Assembly: GCA_029865325.1 (NCBI GenBank)
Contig: JAOUHF010000016.1
Location: 1-33,952, forward strand
Direction of reading: 5' to 3'
Length of the DNA: 33,952 nucleotides
From: Thermoleophilia bacterium
GTDB lineage: Bacteria > Actinomycetota > Thermoleophilia > Gaiellales > Gaiellaceae
Part shown: piece after piece, positions 1 to 8,191 of the stretch
Position numbering within the stretch: position 1 is the first letter of the stretch
Layout of the letters: every line of letters begins with the position of its first letter
Notes under the pieces: model-generated
What the model was told of the DNA's origin: nothing
Seen by the model: the letters and a program-made list of their open reading frames with translations, nothing else
Databases searched by the model: none
Made by a program: the position numbers and the translations under genes

Positions 1-93
1 AGCGAGCAGGGACACCACGACTCCTTTGCCGAGCATGTCAAGCGCTGTCTCCAGCGGGATCTCCTCGAGCCTGATGAAGGTTGCGTCGGCCAC
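1..93 (-). CDS. N-terminal part of an unidentified protein, truncated by window edge
   Basis: Open frame from GTG at 93 reading VADATFIRLEEIPLETALDMLGKGVVVSLLA; just downstream of the ADH gene on the same strand. Confidence 0.35.
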   Translation of the reverse strand, partial: MADATFIRLEEIPLETALDMLGKGVVVSLLA

Positions 94-113
94 TGGCCGA
101 GACGGTCCGCGGC

Positions 114-1142
114 TCAGGGTTGAACCACCGTCCGCACCTCATCGCTGAATGCTTCCAAGCGGTCCAGGGCAAGGTTGATGGCGTCTGCCTCGAGCGGGAT
201 ACAGGCCGTGACGGCCGGCGCCAGATTCAGCTTGCCCTCACGCGCGAAGGCGATCAATTCGGGAAGCTCCGCCGCCAGGTGATCCGAGACGCCGATGATC
301 TCAGCTTCCTTGTTGATGACTTCGGGATACGGCGCCACCGGAAAACTCTCCTGTGTGATGCCGACCAGCGCGGCGCGACCCTTGATCGCGAGTGACCCCA
401 CGGCTTGTTGCATTGTCAACGGCAGACCGACCAGTTCCAGCGCTACGTCCACGCCCCGACCGTCGGTCAACACTTGAATTGCGGCCACGGGATCGTCGCT
501 CGCTGCGTCGACCGGCGTCGCGCCCAGCGTGGCGGCGAACGCCAGCTTGTGCGGGTTGATATCCACGGCGAAGACTGCAGCGGCGCCCAGCGCTTGCGCG
601 AGTTGGATCGCGGAGCTCCCCAGTCCACCTGCGCCGAACACGGCAACGCTTTCGCCCGGCCGCAAGCGGGCCTGGCGCAGGGCGTGCAGCGACGTGGCCG
701 ACGAGCACATCAGGATCGCGCCTTGCGGAAACGGGACCTCGTCCGGCAACGCAAAGACACTCCGCTCAGGCATCAAGACGAATTCCGCGTAACCGCCGGC
801 GCGATGCTTGCCCATCATCTGCCCGTCTCGGCAAAACTGCTCATTGTCTGCGCGACACCATTCACAGGCGCCACAAGTGGCGAGGTAGTGAAGACAGACG
901 CGGTCGCCGCGCTTCGCGGTTTGAACCTCGCCGCCGACGATTTCGACGATCCCCGAGACTTCGTGCCCCAACGTCAGTGGCAGCGACGCGACGCTCGAAA
1001 TGCCGGCGCGATAGTGCGCGTCCGAGTGGCAGATGCCCGCAGCCTTCACGCGGACGAGCACGTCGCGGGGGCCAGGTACAGGAACGGGAAGGTCGTGAAG
1101 TTCCAGCGCCTGACCGGGGTGGACGAGGCGGACGGCTTTCAC
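114..1142 (-). CDS. Zinc-dependent alcohol dehydrogenase (MDR superfamily)
   Basis: 342 aa; GICHSDAHYRAG, GHEVSGIVEIVG, structural-zinc cysteines CGACEWCRADNEQFC, Rossmann GAGGLGSSAIQLA. Confidence 0.93.
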   Translation of the reverse strand: MKAVRLVHPGQALELHDLPVPVPGPRDVLVRVKAAGICHSDAHYRAGISSVASLPLTLGHEVSGIVEIVGGEVQTAKRGDRVCLHYLATCGACEWCRADNEQFCRDGQMMGKHRAGGYAEFVLMPERSVFALPDEVPFPQGAILMCSSATSLHALRQARLRPGESVAVFGAGGLGSSAIQLAQALGAAAVFAVDINPHKLAFAATLGATPVDAASDDPVAAIQVLTDGRGVDVALELVGLPLTMQQAVGSLAIKGRAALVGITQESFPVAPYPEVINKEAEIIGVSDHLAAELPELIAFAREGKLNLAPAVTACIPLEADAINLALDRLEAFSDEVRTVVQP

Positions 1143-1242
1143 TTTGCGCCACGATAACAGCGGCCATGAGGAGGCCTGATGCGGGCATGAGCGGTGGGGA
1201 TCGTCGCTCCGTGTCCGCTTGCGCAGCTACCCATACGCCCGC

Positions 1243-1479
1243 ATGACCGACCGACGATCGAAACGCCGTGCGCGGTCCGGCTTCGACTTCAAGGGCCATA
1301 CCGAGGAGATCGGGCTGAAATCCATCAATCTCGTGTGCGAGCGACTCGACGCCTTATTCCCCGAAGAGGACGGCGGCGGATCTTCTCGGTCTTCTTCTTC
1401 CCAGCCTCGACCTCGAACCCGAGCGCCTCAAGAGCAGGACGGCAATTCGGCTAGTGCGGCATCGCTTGTGTTCGGTTGA
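1243..1479 (+). CDS. Hypothetical protein, possibly frameshifted fragment
   Basis: ORF MTDRRSKRRARSGFDFKGHTEEIGLKSINLVCERLDALFPEEDGG; C-terminal third becomes low complexity while another frame becomes protein-like. Confidence 0.25.
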   Translation: MTDRRSKRRARSGFDFKGHTEEIGLKSINLVCERLDALFPEEDGGGSSRSSSSQPRPRTRAPQEQDGNSASAASLVFG

Positions 1480-1675
1480 ACGCAGTGTCTCGCGCTTGGC
1501 ACATACCGGTGAACGCGGCGACAATCGGCCACTCCTCCGGGCAGCCGGACACTTCTTCTCTGCGAGTTGGCCCCCTTAGAACGTCGGAGGTCGCCTCACC
1601 GTTGAACAGACCGAGAATGTCCCAGCGACAGCGGCCAACGCTAAGGCACGCGGCTGTGACGAGCCCTCGGGACAC

Positions 1676-1749
1676 CGCTGATCCTGCCTACTCGGAACTA
1701 CCGAACTGCATCGCGGCTGCCGCTGACCCCGCCTACCCGGAACTACCGA
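1676..1749 (-). repeat. Tandem pair (45-bp period) of the FGSSG-stop tail repeat
   Basis: cgctgatcctgcctactcggaactaccga (1676) and cgctgaccccgcctacccggaactaccga (1721); minus strand ends in TTCGGTAGTTCC(G)GGTAG-like sequence. Confidence 0.7.
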
Positions 1750-1929
1750 GCCGTCAGCCGCGCTTCAGCGTCCAGAGGACGGCGTGCGCTTCACCGAGGA
1801 AGAAAGCGGCGGCCACCCCGAGGTGCTACCTCGGTACTAAACACCGACGTCGAAGGACCGGCGATGTGAGAGCCTCGGAAGCTCGTGTAGAAAGGCGCGC
1901 CGTCGCTTCTCGGCCGAAAGGGGGCATAC

Positions 1930-2193
1930 GTGAGCCTTGTATTGACCCTTCCTCTCGCTGACTGGGGCATGCACGACGACGTCGGCGGTGGATGGATGAT
2001 CGTGATGATGTTCTTGATGCTGCTCTTCTGGGTAGCAGTCATCCTCGGGATTGTCTGGCTCGCCCGCGGTGGAGGCGGCGGCTGGCGAGAACCGCGAAGG
2101 GAGACGCCGACCGAGATCCTCGACCGCCGATTCGCCGAAGGTGCGATCTCGGTGGAGGACTACCAGGAACGGCTAAAGGTCCTCACGGGCTAA
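1930..2193 (+). CDS. Small membrane protein with C-terminal SHOCT domain
   Basis: 87 aa; one hydrophobic segment then ETPTEILDRRFAEGAISVEDYQERLKVL, typical SHOCT; GTG start after AAAGGGGG. Confidence 0.75.
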   Translation: MSLVLTLPLADWGMHDDVGGGWMIVMMFLMLLFWVAVILGIVWLARGGGGGWREPRRETPTEILDRRFAEGAISVEDYQERLKVLTG

Positions 2194-2287
2194 GCCCAGC
2201 ACTTCGGTCAGAATAGACATGTGGTCTTCTACGCACGCGGCTTGATGATGTGTTCGTGATCATGACCAGACACGTCGAAGGAGAGCC

Positions 2288-2725
2288 GTGCGTTCGAGGA
2301 ATCTTGTCCTCTTTGCCGTCATTGCCGCCCTTGCCGTAGGGGCGGCACTTGCGACAGGCATCATCGGAACCGGTCCGGATCACGATGATCCGGGGCAGGG
2401 CGCGACCGGCTACGTGCGTGAGCATCCGGTGGACGTGCCCACGTCTGCGCGCACGGTTTCCGTGTCATCTGACATGCCGATGCCGTCCGCACACGCCCGG
2501 ATGCTCTCGGCGATGCTCATCGAAGGCCACCTCCCCGACGCGCCCGTGATGGCGGAGGTCATGACCGACACCGATTGCGCGCCCGACGCACAGATGATCT
2601 CGCACTGCCGCAACGAGATGCAGCTGTCCAACGGAGAGAAGATCGTCGTTCGCCACCCACACGACATGCGCGACGTACCGTGCCTCGCGCCGGGTGAGCG
2701 CGTGCGACTCGTTCCCACGGCCTAG
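2288..2725 (+). CDS. Secreted/membrane-anchored protein of unknown function
   Basis: 145 aa, N-terminal signal/TM segment NLVLFAVIAALAVGAALATGII; AAGGAGAG upstream of GTG start. Confidence 0.6.
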   Translation: MRSRNLVLFAVIAALAVGAALATGIIGTGPDHDDPGQGATGYVREHPVDVPTSARTVSVSSDMPMPSAHARMLSAMLIEGHLPDAPVMAEVMTDTDCAPDAQMISHCRNEMQLSNGEKIVVRHPHDMRDVPCLAPGERVRLVPTA

Positions 2726-2774
2726 TCTCCGCTTCCGAATCTTCTAGACCGGTGACGCACTCGCAGCTTTCACC

Positions 2775-2812
2775 GTCCACAGAACTCTCGCTCCCAGCAC
2801 TCCGGGCCGCAT
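2775..2812 (-). repeat. Copy of the CPECWEREFG tail repeat (degenerate)
   Basis: Minus strand reads GPECWEREFCG. Confidence 0.55.
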
Positions 2813-2874
2813 GGGGCCGTGTCCCCAGAAGCCATCTCGACGACATAGCCTGAGTCCGTCATCATCTCTTCCGT

Positions 2875-3057
2875 GATCGTTTCGCGATCATCGACCTGCG
2901 CTCCAGCCCCGACCATCCGCTCGGGGACGCGCTCGAGACCTTCATCCGCCGCGAGGACGCCGAGCGCTTTGTCGCGGAGGGGCGCAGCGACGATCCCGAG
3001 CCTGCGAGCTACCTGCGGATCGAGGAGCGGGAGCTAGAGGCGGGCGGGCGGAACTAG
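2875..3057 (+). pseudogene. Start-less copy of the LRIEERELEAGG tail family
   Basis: Frame reads DRFAIIDLRSSPDHPLGDALETFIRREDAERFVAEGRSDDPEPASYLRIEERELEAGGRN-stop; in-frame TGA at 2851 and no ATG/GTG/TTG between it and the conserved region. Confidence 0.6.
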
Positions 3058-3097
3058 GTACCACTGAGGGTGGCGTTAATGACCGTGCCCGCCTGAG

Positions 3098-3514
3098 TCA
3101 GGTTTGGGTGTCGCCGAGCTGACGTAGGAGCGAGCCGGTGTCCGCAATCTCCCATGCCTCGACGATCAAGCCGTCCCGGAAGTGGGCGAAGACCACCTGG
3201 TCAATCATGAAGCTCTCTCCCTGGGCACGGATGCCCGCGAACTCACCAACGAGGGTGCCAGTGACGACGACCCGAGCGACCGCCCGCGACTCCAGGGCGA
3301 TGGTCTCCTGAACGTCATGGCGGATGTCTGGCATCGCGGCTTTCGCGTCGACCCAAACAGCCTTCTCCCCCTCGACACCCTGTGTGGAGAGCCCAAGCGG
3401 AGCATGGACGATCACGTCGGGGTGCAGGTAGCGGTCGAACGCGTCGACGTCGCCGCGATCACCTGCGGCTAGCCAGTCGCGGAGCAGCGTCTCGTGCGGA
3501 TGCATCTCCGGCAT
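3098..3514 (-). CDS. SnoaL/NTF2-like ester cyclase family protein
   Basis: From internal ATG: MPEMHPHETLLRDWLAAGDRGDVDAFDRYLHPDVIVHAPLGLSTQGVEGEKAVW...; typical NTF2-like polyketide-cyclase layout. Confidence 0.8.
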   Translation of the reverse strand: MPEMHPHETLLRDWLAAGDRGDVDAFDRYLHPDVIVHAPLGLSTQGVEGEKAVWVDAKAAMPDIRHDVQETIALESRAVARVVVTGTLVGEFAGIRAQGESFMIDQVVFAHFRDGLIVEAWEIADTGSLLRQLGDTQT

Positions 3515-3528
3515 GATCACCGATGGCC

Positions 3529-3577
3529 GAACTCGCGCGCTACCTGCGGATCGACGAGCGGGAGCTTCAAGCGGGCG
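3529..3577 (+). repeat. Fragment of LRIEERELEAGG tail family
   Basis: Reads ELARYLRIDERELQAGA; overlaps the region upstream of the NTF2-like gene. Confidence 0.6.
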
Positions 3578-3768
3578 CGTATCTCTGGCGCTCGTACGCG
3601 GATCCCCTGATGGCACCGGGTGCAATTCGCGGCTATGGTGGATGAGCGCGTTGGTTGTCTCTGACGCCGTGGAGGATTTCAACTTCCTCTTCGATTGTCT
3701 CCCCCGACCTAGCGCAGCAGAGAGTTCGTTTTGGGCTCCCTGTCCTGATCGGAACGAAGGAGCATCAC

Positions 3769-4083
3769 ATGTTCGCCACCATTCGTCGTTACGACGGCGT
3801 GGACCAGAATCGTACGGTCGAGCTGACCCGCAAGGTCAACGAAACCCTCGTCCCGAAGCTCGAGAAGCTGTCGGGGTTCAAGGGCTACTACCTGATGGAT
3901 GCCGGCAACGGCGTCTTCAGCTCGTTCGGTCTCTTCGAGACGCCTGAGCAGGGCATGGAGTCGACGAAGCTCGTCACAACGTGGATCCGCGAGGAGAAGC
4001 TCGACACGATTCTCCCCAACGAGCCCAAGATCACGAGCGGCAAGATCGTTGCTCACAGCGACCGCGTTCTCGTCGCCGCGTAG
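3769..4083 (+). CDS. Small protein, likely ABM-like (dimeric alpha-beta barrel) fold
   Basis: 104 aa MFATIRRYDGVDQNRTVELTRKVNETLVPKLEKLSGFKGYYLMDAGNGVFSSFGLFETPEQ...; followed by a terminator hairpin. Confidence 0.75.
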   Translation: MFATIRRYDGVDQNRTVELTRKVNETLVPKLEKLSGFKGYYLMDAGNGVFSSFGLFETPEQGMESTKLVTTWIREEKLDTILPNEPKITSGKIVAHSDRVLVAA

Positions 4084-4105
4084 CTCGACCGCACCGCATT
4101 CGACG

Positions 4106-4129
4106 GAGGGCCCGGCTTGCCGGGCCCTC
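4106..4129 (+). terminator. Strong GC hairpin, likely terminator
   Basis: GAGGGCCCGG-CTTG-CCGGGCCCTC, 10-bp perfect stem 23 nt after the 4083 stop, followed by ATTCGT. Confidence 0.75.
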
Positions 4130-4183
4130 ATTCGTCGACGGAGCCACGTTGAAGCTCTTTCCCCGCGTTTGCCGCCTTCGTAC

Positions 4184-4249
4184 GATCCCGAGCTCGCGAG
4201 CTACCTGCGGATCGAGGAGCGGGCGCTAGAGGCGGGCGGGCGGAACTGA
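4184..4249 (+). repeat. Fragment of LRIEERELEAGG tail family
   Basis: Reads DPELASYLRIEERALEAGGRN-stop; nearly identical in nucleotides to 2989-3057. Confidence 0.7.
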
Positions 4250-4286
4250 GAGGCAAAGACAAGTGAGCCGGCTCGGCAAACCCGCC

Positions 4287-5513
4287 TCAGGTACTGACGA
4301 GGAGAACGAGCGCCTTCCGCGAACTCGCGCCGAGCGCGTCGCGTGCCTCAAGCCTCACACGGAACCTTCCGATCCGACGCGGGGTCCCGGCGATCGTGCC
4401 GGTCTTCGACAAAAGCCTGATGCCGAGCGGGAACTTGCCACGGACCACCCTCCACTTCAGGGGCTGGACGCCTCCCACCGTTTTCAGCTTCAGTCGGTAC
4501 GTGCGTGCGAGCTTCGCGGACCTCAAGCGGAAGGTCTTGATCGCGAGCCTTGGCGCAACGATCAACGCAGTGCTCGCGTTCGCCACGCGTCCTTCGCTGT
4601 CCGTCGCGGTAATGGCGAACGCAAAGTTCCCCGCCGTCTGAGGCGTTCCGCTGATCGTGCCTCGTGTCGCGTCGAGTGCGACGCCGGGGGGCAATGCGCC
4701 CGACTCAAGCGCCCATGCGTAAGTGCCGGTTCCGCCCGTTGCGGTAAAGGTCTTCCCGACGCGGATCCCGACTTCACTGCTCGGCCGCTGCACCGAGCCG
4801 AGCGGGGACTTCACGCTCACGGGCTGGCGGACGGCGAGCGTGTATGTCTGTGTGTCAAAGGGGCTGCCGTTCTCGGCCTTGACGACGAACTGGTAGCTCC
4901 CCTCAGAAGTGGGTGCTCCGCTCAAGACACCAGATTTCGAGAGGGTGATGCCTGGAGGAAGCACTCCCGACTCCAGCGACCAGGTCGCCTGCACCTCGGG
5001 GCCGGTGGGCGGGTTTAGGCCCACAACCTGCTTCGTCGCGAGTGTGTCGGTATAGGCCTGGCCAACGGTGGCCGGCTTGACGGACGGGTTAATGATCGCG
5101 AGTCCCGGGTCGATCGGGATGCTGAATTCGCGTTCCGATCGATCCTCGCGTTCGCACCAAGAAGGTCCCCCTTGCGCGAAGGTGAGGTCGTGGTCCCACA
5201 CCCAGAAACGCGCCAGACCGGCGCCCGTGGGGACGCCGGAGATGACACCGTCTCTCGACATCGAGAGCCCCGTCGGAAGCGAGCCGTTGACGATCTCGAA
5301 CCAGTCGTAAGGTTCGCAGCCCGAGCCCTCCTCGGACTCGATCTCGATCTCATACGGCACGCCGACATACCCCGTCGGACAACGGAGCAGAGCCGCCTCA
5401 CCCGGCGTTTCTCGACACGCGCCGTTGTCGCCCTCGAAGTCCGCGGCAGATGCGCCGGTCACGACGATTGCCGCAAGCACACCGACGACGATGAGGGCGA
5501 GTTTCGACCGCAT
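4287..5513 (-). CDS. Secreted protein with multiple putative Ig (He_PIG-like) repeats
   Basis: 408 aa with signal peptide; repeated motifs GSLPTGLSMSRDGVISGVPTGAG, GVLPPGITLSKSGVLSGAPTSEG, GALPPGVALDATRGTISGTPQTAG, GKFPLGIRLLSKTGTIAGTPRRIG. Confidence 0.87.
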   Translation of the reverse strand: MRSKLALIVVGVLAAIVVTGASAADFEGDNGACRETPGEAALLRCPTGYVGVPYEIEIESEEGSGCEPYDWFEIVNGSLPTGLSMSRDGVISGVPTGAGLARFWVWDHDLTFAQGGPSWCEREDRSEREFSIPIDPGLAIINPSVKPATVGQAYTDTLATKQVVGLNPPTGPEVQATWSLESGVLPPGITLSKSGVLSGAPTSEGSYQFVVKAENGSPFDTQTYTLAVRQPVSVKSPLGSVQRPSSEVGIRVGKTFTATGGTGTYAWALESGALPPGVALDATRGTISGTPQTAGNFAFAITATDSEGRVANASTALIVAPRLAIKTFRLRSAKLARTYRLKLKTVGGVQPLKWRVVRGKFPLGIRLLSKTGTIAGTPRRIGRFRVRLEARDALGASSRKALVLLVST

Positions 5514-5760
5514 TGGCTCGGAATATATTCGGTGACGAAAGTAAGCGTCTTGTGGGCTACCGGCGTGCCGCGCTCACGCGCGACGAACTAGCGGCTGATT
5601 CCTCGTATGTTCGCTCAGGTCTCGCAGGGTGAGTCGAGCGCGGCGGAAGCAGTGCGCTCGAGCGCGATAGGATGAAGCGGATCTGGGCGAAGTGGCAGGC
5701 GGTCGGCAAGATCTAGTCGCCTGGGCGCTCCACTCGCCGCATCAGGGCAACTTCTGAGCC

Positions 5761-5815
5761 CGCCCACCCGGAACTACCGAACTCCCGCTCCCAACCCTCG
5801 GGGCAGAAGACGAAC
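5761..5815 (-). repeat. Copy of CPECWEREFG tail repeat
   Basis: Minus strand reads PFVFCPEGWEREFGSSGWA. Confidence 0.65.
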
Positions 5816-5964
5816 GGCTCCCCTAGCCCTCACCCCACGGAGCCGCTTCGCCTTGCTCGCCTATCGGGGGCCCCCCTTCGAGGGAAATCCGCCGGAATCC
5901 GCAAGTTTTGGCAACTGAGCGCGTCTACTCAGTGAAGGACATCCCCCGAGACAGGAGACAGGGC

Positions 5965-6393
5965 ATGAAGCTCAGATTCTTGCTCATAGGAGTGATGGCG
6001 GCCGGACTTGCGGCCTCGGCCGCGATCGCAGCTCCTCCGCCCGGAAAGGGCAAGCCGGAAACAGCCGGCAAGCCCGCAACGACCGGACTGACGTGCAAGC
6101 CGAAGGTCACCGTCGTGCTGAAGGGAGCGCTCACGAGCGCCTCGGCGGACTCGCTTGGCATGAGCGTGACGCGTTCCAATCGGTGGGGGCGAGCGTACGC
6201 CGGAGCCGGCACGGCGACGGTGATCGTCGACGACAAGACGAAGGTTCGCCGAAACGGCAAGAAAATGCTGACGGACCTCGAAGTCGGCGACTGGCTGCTC
6301 GTCCAGGCGAGAGCGTGCAAGGCCGACCTCCTCGCGGAGGAAGCGCCCGCTCTGACCGCCGTACGGGTCGTCGCTCACCCGGCGAAGGCGTAA
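5965..6393 (+). CDS. Exported protein, DUF5666-like / OB-fold-like
   Basis: Signal peptide MKLRFLLIGVMAAGLAASAAIA, then VTVVLKGALTSASADSLGMSV..VIVDDKTKVRRNGKKMLTDLEVGDWLLVQARA. Confidence 0.7.
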   Translation: MKLRFLLIGVMAAGLAASAAIAAPPPGKGKPETAGKPATTGLTCKPKVTVVLKGALTSASADSLGMSVTRSNRWGRAYAGAGTATVIVDDKTKVRRNGKKMLTDLEVGDWLLVQARACKADLLAEEAPALTAVRVVAHPAKA

Positions 6394-6427
6394 AGGCAGC
6401 AGACAGGCTTCTCCACGGGGGAACGCA

Positions 6428-6480
6428 GCGGGAAGGGCGATCACACCACCGGGCGGCGGCACCCGTGTCGCCCTTCCCGC
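6428..6480 (+). terminator. Inverted repeat, likely terminator
   Basis: 13-bp perfect arms GCGGGAAGGGCGA (6428-6440) and TCGCCCTTCCCGC (6468-6480), downstream of the 6393 stop. Confidence 0.65.
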
Positions 6481-6532
6481 AAAGAACGGGACTCAGAGGT
6501 ATCGACGCCCTGCCGCCAGGCGAAAGGCGGCA

Positions 6533-6733
6533 ATGGACACAGGCGACACTGTGATATACGGGGGCAGCCGCTTCGTCGTCCGAGGCATTGATCCAGCGGG
6601 CGTTGATCCGCGCTGTGTCTACCTGGAAGATGCCAAGACCGGGAAGAGAGTCTCAGTTACCTACGAAGAGCCGGCGCGCGCAGCGCGGAACGATGCCGTC
6701 CTCCATGTCGTAGACGACGAAGACCCCGCTTAG
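6533..6733 (+). CDS. Hypothetical small protein
   Basis: 66 aa MDTGDTVIYGGSRFVVRGIDPAGVDPRCVYLEDAKTGKRVSVTYEEP...; protein-like composition. Confidence 0.5.
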   Translation: MDTGDTVIYGGSRFVVRGIDPAGVDPRCVYLEDAKTGKRVSVTYEEPARAARNDAVLHVVDDEDPA

Positions 6734-6735
6734 GC

Positions 6736-6822
6736 CGCGAGGACGCGGAGCGCTTCATCGAGGAGGTTCGCGGCGACGATCCCGAGCTCGCGAGCTACCT
6801 GCGGATCGAGGAGCGGGTGGAG
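6736..6822 (+). repeat. Fragment of LRIEERELEAGG tail family
   Basis: Reads REDAERFIEEVRGDDPELASYLRIEERVEYRT; starts right after the 6733 stop. Confidence 0.65.
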
Positions 6823-6840
6823 TATCGGACGCGACTCGGG

Positions 6841-7059
6841 CTAACCCGGAACGGAGACGCGGACGGAGGGGGTGTCCGTGCCCTCAGGGTCATGGACGTA
6901 CTGCCCTCCATGCGTTCCTCGGATGAAACGAAAACCGGTCCGCCGGGCGGTGCTTTCTCTGATGTTGCCCCGAAGGTAGTCGCGTAACTCCGCGATTTCG
7001 ACATCGAGCAGGTCGGCCAGTCGCTTCTCGATCTCCTTCGCACGGTCGCCGCTGATCAT
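6841..7059 (-). CDS. Hypothetical small protein
   Basis: 72 aa MISGDRAKEIEKRLADLLDVEIAELRDYLRGNIRESTARRTGFRFIRGTHGGQYVHDPEG...; amphipathic helical N-terminus. Confidence 0.45.
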   Translation of the reverse strand: MISGDRAKEIEKRLADLLDVEIAELRDYLRGNIRESTARRTGFRFIRGTHGGQYVHDPEGTDTPSVRVSVPG

Positions 7060-7103
7060 TGGCTGAGTGAAGCGACCGCGTCGGATGTCGGATATACGAG
7101 CGC

Positions 7104-7130
7104 CGCCGCTGACCCCGCCTACCCGGAGCC
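7104..7130 (-). repeat. Partial copy of the SSG-stop tail plus its 3' flank
   Basis: gccgctgaccccgcctacccgga, matches the 1721 copy including bases beyond the stop. Confidence 0.5.
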
Positions 7131-7378
7131 GCGGAGGCGGGGGGCGACGAAGATGGATGACCGGCCACGCATACGCGAGAGAAGAACAGCGACGACCTGT
7201 CGCAAATTGCGCCGGATTTCGTCCGTCAGTGCTTGACCGGCGAGCAGGCGGTCCTTAGAGTCGCCGATGTACCGAGTACGGAGCGTCTGAGGTTGATGGC
7301 TCCCCGAGAGGCACTCGCTTCGGCGAAGGTCAGTCGGGTTGCCGGACGAGGTCGCCACCGGCTCGGTGCATTTTCGTG

Positions 7379-7420
7379 GTCCTATCCCGCTCCCAGCATT
7401 CCGGGCAGAAGACGAACTAT
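7379..7420 (-). repeat. Copy of CPECWEREFG tail repeat
   Basis: Minus strand reads FVFCPECWERDR. Confidence 0.6.
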
Positions 7421-7537
7421 CCGTGGATGAGGAAGGCCCGTCGGGTGGCGGGGGTGCCGCGCTCGTGCGGAGGAAACCAATGCGGAAGAGCCAACTGCTC
7501 CAAGCAAGTCCTGACAACTGCTTGCAGGAGGCCATCT

Positions 7538-7708
7538 ATGTGGTACGGAATCGGCTTCGCCGCTCTCCTCTGGATCATCCTCTTTGTCTGGCTCGGCCTC
7601 AGAACGCTCCGAAACGGACACGGATGGATGTTCTTCCTCGGGATCTTCCTCCCGCTGCTCTGGATCATCGGCGCGTTCATGCAGCCTGCCAACCGGCAGG
7701 CGTACTGA
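7538..7708 (+). CDS. Small two-TM membrane protein
   Basis: 56 aa MWYGIGFAALLWIILFVWLGLRTLRNGHGWMFFLGIFLPLLWIIGAFMQPANRQAY; RBS GCAGGAGG before ATG. Confidence 0.65.
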   Translation: MWYGIGFAALLWIILFVWLGLRTLRNGHGWMFFLGIFLPLLWIIGAFMQPANRQAY

Positions 7709-7742
7709 CCCCGTAGACGACCCGAGTACTTAGAGGGAACGG

Positions 7743-7762
7743 GGCCCGCCGAGTGGCGGGCC
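7743..7762 (+). terminator. Hairpin, likely terminator
   Basis: GGCCCGCC-GAGT-GGCGGGCC, 8-bp stem 35 nt after the 7708 stop. Confidence 0.6.
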
Positions 7763-7768
7763 TCCCGC

Positions 7769-7815
7769 CTACCCGAAACTACCGAACTCCCGCTTCCAGC
7801 ACTCCGAGCAAGTCG
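7769..7815 (-). repeat. Copy of CPECWEREFG tail repeat
   Basis: Minus strand reads CSECWKREFGSFG-stop. Confidence 0.65.
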
Positions 7816-7934
7816 CGACCAGTAGCTATCGCACCACAGCGTCTAGAGAACGACGGGCGTCCGGCTGCGGGGGGTCTTCGAGTACGAGGCCGTCCGTTTC
7901 TGGGAGAAGCTCCTCGTCCACAGGCACGGCGGTC

Positions 7935-8093
7935 TCATTTGCCGGCCTTGCGTCCGAGCCCGACGGGATTCAGCCTGCCACCGTGGAGCGCGCATATTCC
8001 GTCGACGTCGCTTACAGCCTTCGATCGGCATTGGACACCGGCCCGCGTGGTCGCTTGACAGGGTGTCGTGGTTCGTCGTATCTCAGGAAACAA
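7935..8093 (-). CDS. Small HGG-motif Cys-rich protein
   Basis: CQATTRAGVQCRSKAVSDVDGICALHGGRLNPVGLGRKAGK; C-x(9)-C-x(10)-C-x2-HGG layout. Listed ORF start lies inside the tRNA; a TTG at 8093 is a more plausible start. Confidence 0.4.
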   Translation of the reverse strand: MFPEIRRTTTPCQATTRAGVQCRSKAVSDVDGICALHGGRLNPVGLGRKAGK

Positions 8094-8097
8094 AGAA

Positions 8098-8113
8098 CCC
8101 CGTCTATGCGGGG
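8098..8113 (-). terminator. Hairpin downstream of tRNA-Ala
   Basis: Minus strand CCCCG-CATAGA-CGGGG followed by T-rich TTCTTTGTTT. Confidence 0.55.
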
Positions 8114-8118
8114 CTCCA

Positions 8119-8191
8119 TGGAGCGTACCGGGATCGAACCGGTGACCTCCGGCTTGCAAAGCCGGCGCTCTCCCAGCTGAGCTAACGCCCC
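8119..8191 (-). tRNA. tRNA-Ala(UGC)
   Basis: Minus strand GGGGCGTTAGCTCAGCTGGGAGAGCGCCGGCTTTGCAAGCCGGAGGTCACCGGTTCGATCCCGGTACGCTCCA; full cloverleaf, anticodon TGC, CCA not encoded. Confidence 0.97.

What the first reader, a model, noticed from the sequence alone, without database searches (positions are those of the whole stretch)
1676..7815. Second dispersed module on the '-' strand: FCPECWEREFGSSG-stop
Fragments at 1676-1749 (two), 2775-2812, 5761-5815, 7104-7130, 7379-7420 and 7769-7815 read, on the minus strand, as variants of VFCPECWEREFGSSG-stop. Similarity in some copies continues past the stop (GCGGGGTCAGCGGC), so the unit is not purely coding. All are on the same strand and interleaved with the opposite-strand LRIEERELEAGG module, which suggests the two modules are linked. 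A CPEC pair suggests a short zinc-binding tail.
Basis: partly seen in the sequence, partly recalled or inferred. Interest (0 to 1): 0.68.

Follow-up and report, generated by a model that had tools for sequence, protein, structure and literature searches.

The report
Mosaic repeat relics in tRNA-flanking islands
The "CPECWEREFGSSG" pieces are not a small zinc-binding peptide; read on the other strand they are the non-coding front part of one broken-up, genus-specific ~316-base repeat whose back part is a degraded small gene, and its pieces pile up, mostly pointing the same way, in the variable DNA that collects just behind tRNA genes.

Summary
The fragments are real and repeated genome-wide, but three of the seven (1676-1749 twice, 7104-7130) contain only the 'SSG-stop + tail' part, not CPEC. 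They belong with the LRIEERELEAGG pieces to ONE ~316-nt repeat, in order T (42 nt) - CW (~24-35 nt) - M (~60 nt) - A (186 nt, a 61-codon ORF). On the A strand, 'CPECWEREFGSSG' is the antisense of T-CW. Codon-position analysis shows A was protein-coding (third-position changes about 2x, p 8e-17). T-CW shows no such signal in any frame (95% power), and the CxxC survives in 11 of 19 copies, so the zinc-tail idea fails. About 44 pieces in this 2.6-Mb genome are old (median identity 75-80%), mosaic, co-oriented within clusters (31/35 neighbours), and confined to one genus. 26 of 44 lie within 7 kb downstream of a tRNA 3' end, none upstream. In sister species, pieces lie inside islands bracketed by direct repeats of the tRNA 3' half. 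The tRNA orthologous to the window's tRNA-Ala carries an att-bracketed island with a tyrosine integrase. Best reading: decayed backbone or cargo pieces of integrative islands stacked repeatedly at tRNA genes. How the repeat itself spread is not shown.

The parts
1675..1707 (+). T unit (consensus 13-45); on the minus strand reads SSG*+tail
1708..1749 (+). complete T unit (consensus 1-42), in tandem with the previous one
1775..1822 (+). weak, divergent piece of A (consensus 212-259, 79%)
2779..3057 (+). nearly complete repeat: CW - M - A (consensus 38-316, 91%); A reads FAIIDLRSSPDHPLGDALETFIRREDAERF...LRIEERELEAGGRN*
3527..3577 (+). 3' piece of A (consensus 255-305, 88%)
4182..4247 (+). 3' piece of A (consensus 249-314, 98.5%), sharp 5' truncation
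5739..5815 (+). T-CW unit (consensus 1-66 plus AGAAGACGAAC); minus strand reads FCPEGWEREFGSSG*
6734..6817 (+). internal piece of A (consensus 207-290, 98%)
7099..7127 (+). T piece only (consensus 6-34); no CPEC
7385..7417 (+). CW unit only; minus strand reads FCPECWERD
7764..7810 (+). T-CW piece (consensus 21-66); minus strand reads CSECWKREFGSFG*
8119..8191 (-). tRNA-Ala(TGC); its 3' end faces the repeat cluster; synteny with sister species stops here

Best explanation
The pieces are decayed, mosaic copies of one genus-restricted ~316-nt repeat: a non-coding leader (T-CW-M, the supposed CPEC module in antisense) followed by a former small gene A (61 codons). Step 1 (shown): A was once translated and selected; T-CW shows no such selection. 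Step 2 (shown): the copies are old, broken at recurrent junctions, and most sit in variable regions immediately downstream of tRNA genes. Step 3 (shown in sister species, inferred for the window): those regions are islands integrated by site-specific recombination into the tRNA 3' half, because they are bracketed by direct repeats of the tRNA and one carries a tyrosine integrase. Step 4 (inferred): the repeat was a backbone or cargo module of such islands. Serial, one-way integration and decay at the same tRNA ends (accretion) left many pieces in one orientation between unrelated accessory genes, and recombination between pieces made the mosaics.
For: One repeat: joined copies at C126, C65, C1, C96 and reverse junctions A-T at C156, C96, C8. 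Coding A / non-coding T-CW. Sharp repeat ends: 28 of 69 pieces end at consensus 305-316 (p 6e-22) and 14 start at 1-16 (p 8e-6). tRNA: 26 of 44 pieces within 7 kb downstream of a tRNA 3' end, 0 upstream; 6 of 13 clusters within 3 kb, p 1e-5 to 1e-3. att-like tRNA repeats: G006 tRNA-Val +5.96 kb enclosing all four pieces of that locus, G010 tRNA-His +1.96 kb enclosing one, C96 tRNA-Lys +2.8 kb, G006 tRNA-Ala +5.98 kb; integrase PF00589 (5.7e-22) beside the last, at the ortholog of the window's tRNA. Co-orientation 31/35, p 1.7e-6. Genus only.
Against: No att copy of tRNA-Ala was found in the 8.1 kb available in the window (contig end), nor at C156, C65, C67, C122 or the other cluster tRNAs tested. 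No strong repeat piece was found in the G006 tRNA-Ala island that has the integrase, so the integrase and the repeat have not been seen in one island. Orientation relative to the tRNA is mixed between clusters (about 6 antiparallel, 4 parallel). About half of the clusters are on contigs without a tRNA. The cluster test treats contigs as independent and the genome is a draft MAG.
Confidence: 0.55

Rival explanations
1. Independent small non-autonomous transposon (MITE-like): the repeat moved by itself, with an enzyme supplied in trans, and only survives in the tRNA-flanking islands because insertions there are harmless.
For: Dispersed short repeat with sharp ends, many truncated copies; the window island is only about 55% coding by the genes I could assign.
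Against: By inspection the two ends (GCATCAGGGCAGCCGC... and ...GGCGGGCGGAACTAG) are not inverted copies; no very young pair of copies; strong local co-orientation and pieces inside att-bracketed islands are not predicted. Target-site duplications were not tested systematically.
Confidence: 0.2
2. Integron-like gene-cassette array: T-CW/A pieces are attC-type recombination sites between cassettes.
For: Co-oriented repeats alternating with unrelated small accessory genes.
Against: No integron integrase above cut-off in the genome; the long T-CW hairpin shows no pair with changes on both sides; accessory genes in both orientations; A is a former gene, not a site.
Confidence: 0.07
3. Ordinary pseudogene debris: A is a small host gene family with its upstream region, duplicated and fragmented by decay in low-selection regions.
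For: Coding signal in A, stops and frameshifts in many copies, old star-like copies.
Against: No intact parent family was found in 300 genomes of the class, plasmids, phages or viral contigs; free-standing T-CW units with sharp ends and A-T junctions; truncated A pieces are not in frame with upstream ORFs.
Confidence: 0.15
4. One reading: a dispersed short zinc-binding C-terminal peptide CPECWEREFGSSG-stop.
For: Open frame with CPEC in some copies.
Against: No codon-position signal, wobble phase of that frame is the least variable; CxxC in 11 of 19 copies; no shared start; three of seven listed places lack the motif.
Confidence: 0.03

Closest known systems
Small noncoding repeats (SNRs) of Deinococcus radiodurans (described as mosaic-type, 295 copies, absent from D. 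geothermalis; PMC1978522)
   Same: Short, dispersed, mosaic repeats restricted to a narrow lineage.
   Different: Here one module is a former protein-coding gene, copies are co-oriented, and they sit downstream of tRNA genes.
Neisserial intergenic mosaic elements (NIMEs, dRS3/RS; PMC3898611)
   Same: Short modules in variable order forming intergenic arrays beside variable genes, linked to integrase-mediated recombination.
   Different: No 20-bp dRS3-like inverted repeat was seen; the tie here is to tRNA integration sites.
Rickettsia palindromic elements / prokaryotic MITEs (PMC10969869)
   Same: Short repeats with open frames.
   Different: No sign of in-frame fusion to upstream ORFs and no terminal inverted repeats.
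tRNA-integrated genomic islands with accretion and decay (CIME/IME; PMC5704250; hotspots PMC5635113)
   Same: att-like direct repeats of the tRNA 3' half, integrase beside the tRNA in a sister species, islands without a recognisable integrase.
   Different: The passages I read do not describe a repeat family marking the layers; here the pieces would be a tracer of them.

Membership tests
Short zinc-binding peptide / C-terminal tail | Reading frame under protein-level selection | tested here: not met
   T-CW phases 10.9/11.2/13.7%, p 0.37; CPEC-frame wobble ratio 0.87 (0.62-1.15), power 95%
Short zinc-binding peptide / C-terminal tail | Conserved Cys pair | tested here: not met
   CxxC in 11 of 19 copies
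Mosaic intergenic repeats (SNR/NIME kind) | Dispersed multi-copy short repeat, lineage-restricted | tested here: met
Mosaic intergenic repeats (SNR/NIME kind) | Modules joined in different combinations with recurrent junctions | tested here: met
   T alone, T-T, T-CW, T-CW-M-A, A-T, inverted T/A; recurrent ends at 1, 42, 66, 316
MITE | Terminal inverted repeats | tested here: not met
   ends compared by inspection, not complementary; no inverted pair at the ends of the near-full copy at 2779-3057 among those listed
MITE | Target-site duplications | not tested
   no empty sites available
Integron cassette array | Integron integrase (TIGR02249) | tested here: not met
   no match over cut-off in the genome
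Integron cassette array | attC hairpin | tested here: not met
   no covariation support for a hairpin in T-CW
tRNA-integrated island | Direct repeat of the tRNA 3' part at the far end | tested here: inconclusive
   met at G006 tRNA-Val and tRNA-Ala, G010 tRNA-His, C96 tRNA-Lys; not found for the window's tRNA-Ala within 8.1 kb to the contig end
tRNA-integrated island | Integrase gene in the island | tested here: inconclusive
   present in the G006 tRNA-Ala island; none in the window cluster
tRNA-integrated island | Variable content: synteny stops at the tRNA 3' end | tested here: met
   window 8118 against G003, G006, G010

The most novel reading that the evidence does not exclude
T-CW-M-A is the conserved core (regulatory or recombination module plus a 61-aa accessory protein) of an undescribed family of very small tRNA-integrating elements of this genus, and the co-oriented pieces are a readable layer-by-layer record of serial integrations.
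Probability: 0.25. Interest if true: 0.6.

Novelty: new variant of a known kind. Interest (0 to 1): 0.42.

Why it matters
Small ORF-like repeats such as CPECWEREFGSSG can be annotated as peptides; here a codon test separates a real former gene (A) from an antisense coincidence (T-CW). If the accretion reading is right, the repeat is a tracer that lets one count and order past integrations at tRNA genes in a lineage known mostly from draft metagenome-assembled genomes; about half of bacterial gene-transfer hotspots lack evidence of mobile elements (PMC5635113), so such tracers would be useful.

Tried and rejected
Peptide reading of CPEC (codon test; CxxC count). Structured RNA for T-CW: single-sequence folds at most modestly better than shuffles and no covariation. 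Integron. C-terminal tail fused to different proteins: upstream open stretches are no longer in the A frame than in the other two. Replication-strand bias: GC skew of the contigs is near zero and does not follow orientation. Structure of A: AlphaFold gave pLDDT 54, not used. Known families for A: no significant hit in Pfam or NCBIfam, nothing significant in PDB, and no match in plasmids, phages or viral contigs.

Full report
CHECK OF THE OBSERVATION. The listed places contain repeated DNA in one orientation. A 71-nt query from 5745-5815 finds about 16 other places in the 2.59-Mb genome at E<0.01, the best non-self at 1.5e-14. Aligning the copies with their flanks shows that the seven listed places are not equivalent. 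1676-1749 (two) and 7104-7130 hold only a tail unit T (GCATCAGGGCAGCCGCTGACCCCGCCTACCCGGAACTACCGA on the + strand). 7379-7420 holds only a unit CW (TCCCGCTCCCAGCACTCCGGGCAGAAGACG), and 2775-2812 is the CW start of a longer copy. 5761-5815 and 7769-7815 hold T followed by CW. The peptide CPECWEREFGSSG-stop is the antisense reading of T-CW.

ONE REPEAT, NOT TWO MODULES. The LRIEERELEAGG pieces (unit A) are on the same contigs (hypergeometric p about 1e-9 to 3e-12) and are physically joined to T-CW by a ~60-nt unit M. C65:11811-12112 and C1:1777-2085 read T-CW-M-A, and window 2779-3057 and C96:10491-10738 read CW-M-A. A is a 61-codon ORF, VIVYAIIDLRSSPDHPLGDAVETFIRREDAERFIEEVRGDDPELASYLRIEERELEAGGLN*, broken by stops, frameshifts or truncation in many copies. 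Junctions in other combinations also occur: A followed by T (C156:527-699, C96:8696-8763, C8:16999-17074), T-T (window 1675-1749), and T-CW inverted against A (C156:1483-1715). No other repeat family of comparable copy number was found in these regions.

CODING TEST. Counting substitutions against the consensus by codon phase: A has 9.7, 9.0 and 18.5% at codon positions 1, 2 and 3 (ratio 1.97, bootstrap 1.73-2.27, p 8e-17). The signal holds in the truncated pieces alone (p 4e-6). T-CW has 10.9, 11.2 and 13.7% (p 0.37), and the wobble phase of the CPEC frame is if anything the least variable (ratio 0.87, 0.62-1.15). An A-like signal would have been seen with 95% power. The CxxC is kept in 11 of 19 copies. 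So A descends from a translated gene and the CPEC peptide is most likely an accident of the antisense strand. A hairpin in T-CW is not supported by covariation.

ENDS AND AGE. 28 of 69 pieces end at consensus 305-316, the stop codon of A (p 6e-22), and 14 begin at 1-16 (p 8e-6); 42 and 66 are further recurrent ends (the pile-up at 66 partly reflects that free T-CW units continue with a different sequence than the joined copies). 5'-truncated A pieces are not preferentially in frame with upstream ORFs. Copies are old: the best pair within the genome is 95% over 66 nt, with medians of 75% (A) and 80% (T-CW), and the tree is star-like and poorly resolved. The repeat occurs in several sister species of one genus (G003, G006, G009, G010). 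No convincing relative was found outside the genus, in plasmids, phages or viral contigs.

WHERE IT LIES. Of 44 pieces in the genome, 26 lie within 7 kb downstream of a tRNA 3' end and none within 7 kb upstream. 6 of 13 clusters have a piece within 3 kb downstream (binomial p 1e-5, or 1e-3 with a wider window). In the window the tRNA is tRNA-Ala(TGC) at 8119-8191 (-). Conservation with G003, G006 and G010 covers the tRNA, and in G003 and G006 the genes beyond it, and stops at its 3' end apart from isolated gene matches. The region 1-8118 is only about 55% coding by the genes I could assign. Its genes are unrelated: alcohol dehydrogenase, SHOCT-like, SnoaL-like and Ig-like proteins plus small unknowns. 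Within clusters, 31 of 35 neighbouring copies point the same way (p 1.7e-6).

ISLANDS. Direct repeats of the tRNA from about the anticodon loop to the 3' end were found downstream of four tRNAs. G006 tRNA-Val at +5.96 kb (45 nt, 80%) encloses all four repeat pieces of that locus. G010 tRNA-His at +1.96 kb (47 nt, 89%) encloses one A piece. C96 tRNA-Lys at +2.8 kb (54 nt, 93%) encloses none. G006 tRNA-Ala, the ortholog of the window's tRNA, has one at +5.98 kb (46 nt, 96%). Beside the last is a 401-aa ORF with a phage-integrase domain (PF00589, 5.7e-22). Such footprints are those expected of site-specific integration into tRNA genes (established knowledge). Stacking of decayed and new elements at one target-gene end is described for integrative elements (PMC5704250), and many gene-transfer hotspots lack recognisable mobile elements (PMC5635113).

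EXPLANATION. Shown: a single mosaic repeat, a former gene plus non-coding leader, old, lineage-restricted, co-oriented, mostly downstream of tRNA genes, and inside att-bracketed islands in two sister species. Inferred: that it was a module of the integrating islands and that serial one-way integration explains the co-orientation. Not shown: an island carrying both integrase and repeat, an att copy in the window itself, or the enzyme that spread the repeat. Orientation relative to the tRNA differs between clusters, which a single integration geometry would not predict.

COMPARISON. It resembles the mosaic SNRs of Deinococcus radiodurans and the NIMEs of Neisseria as a kind. It differs in having a coding-derived module and in its place behind tRNA genes. 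It fails tests for an integron array and for a zinc-binding peptide, and lacks the inverted ends of a MITE.

Noticed in passing
L104 (G000:C96) 3376-3430 and 6251-6323: A 54-nt copy (93%) of the tRNA-Lys 3' part lies 2.8 kb downstream of the tRNA, bracketing a small island without repeat pieces.
   Followed up: partly
L092 (G006:C136) 1124-2804: tRNA-Glu and tRNA-Val, adjacent in G000:C96 (6378-6527), are separated by about 1.5 kb in G006.
   Followed up: no
L096 (G010:C2) about 2550-2582: The first 33 nt of tRNA-His are duplicated (100%) about 180 nt upstream of the gene, as if left by an earlier integration or excision.
   Followed up: no
L028 (G000:C172) 2725-2970 and L099 (G010:C144) 3220-3491: A T-CW piece sits just upstream of a homologous cyclase-like gene start in both species (46 and 36 nt away); in G000 that gene is only a fragment. 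It may be an inherited copy or a shared 5' region.
   Followed up: partly
L161 (G007:C1:680000-693000): In the only single-contig genome of the genus the gene next to the window's tRNA-Ala is conserved but no tRNA is found beside it.
   Followed up: no
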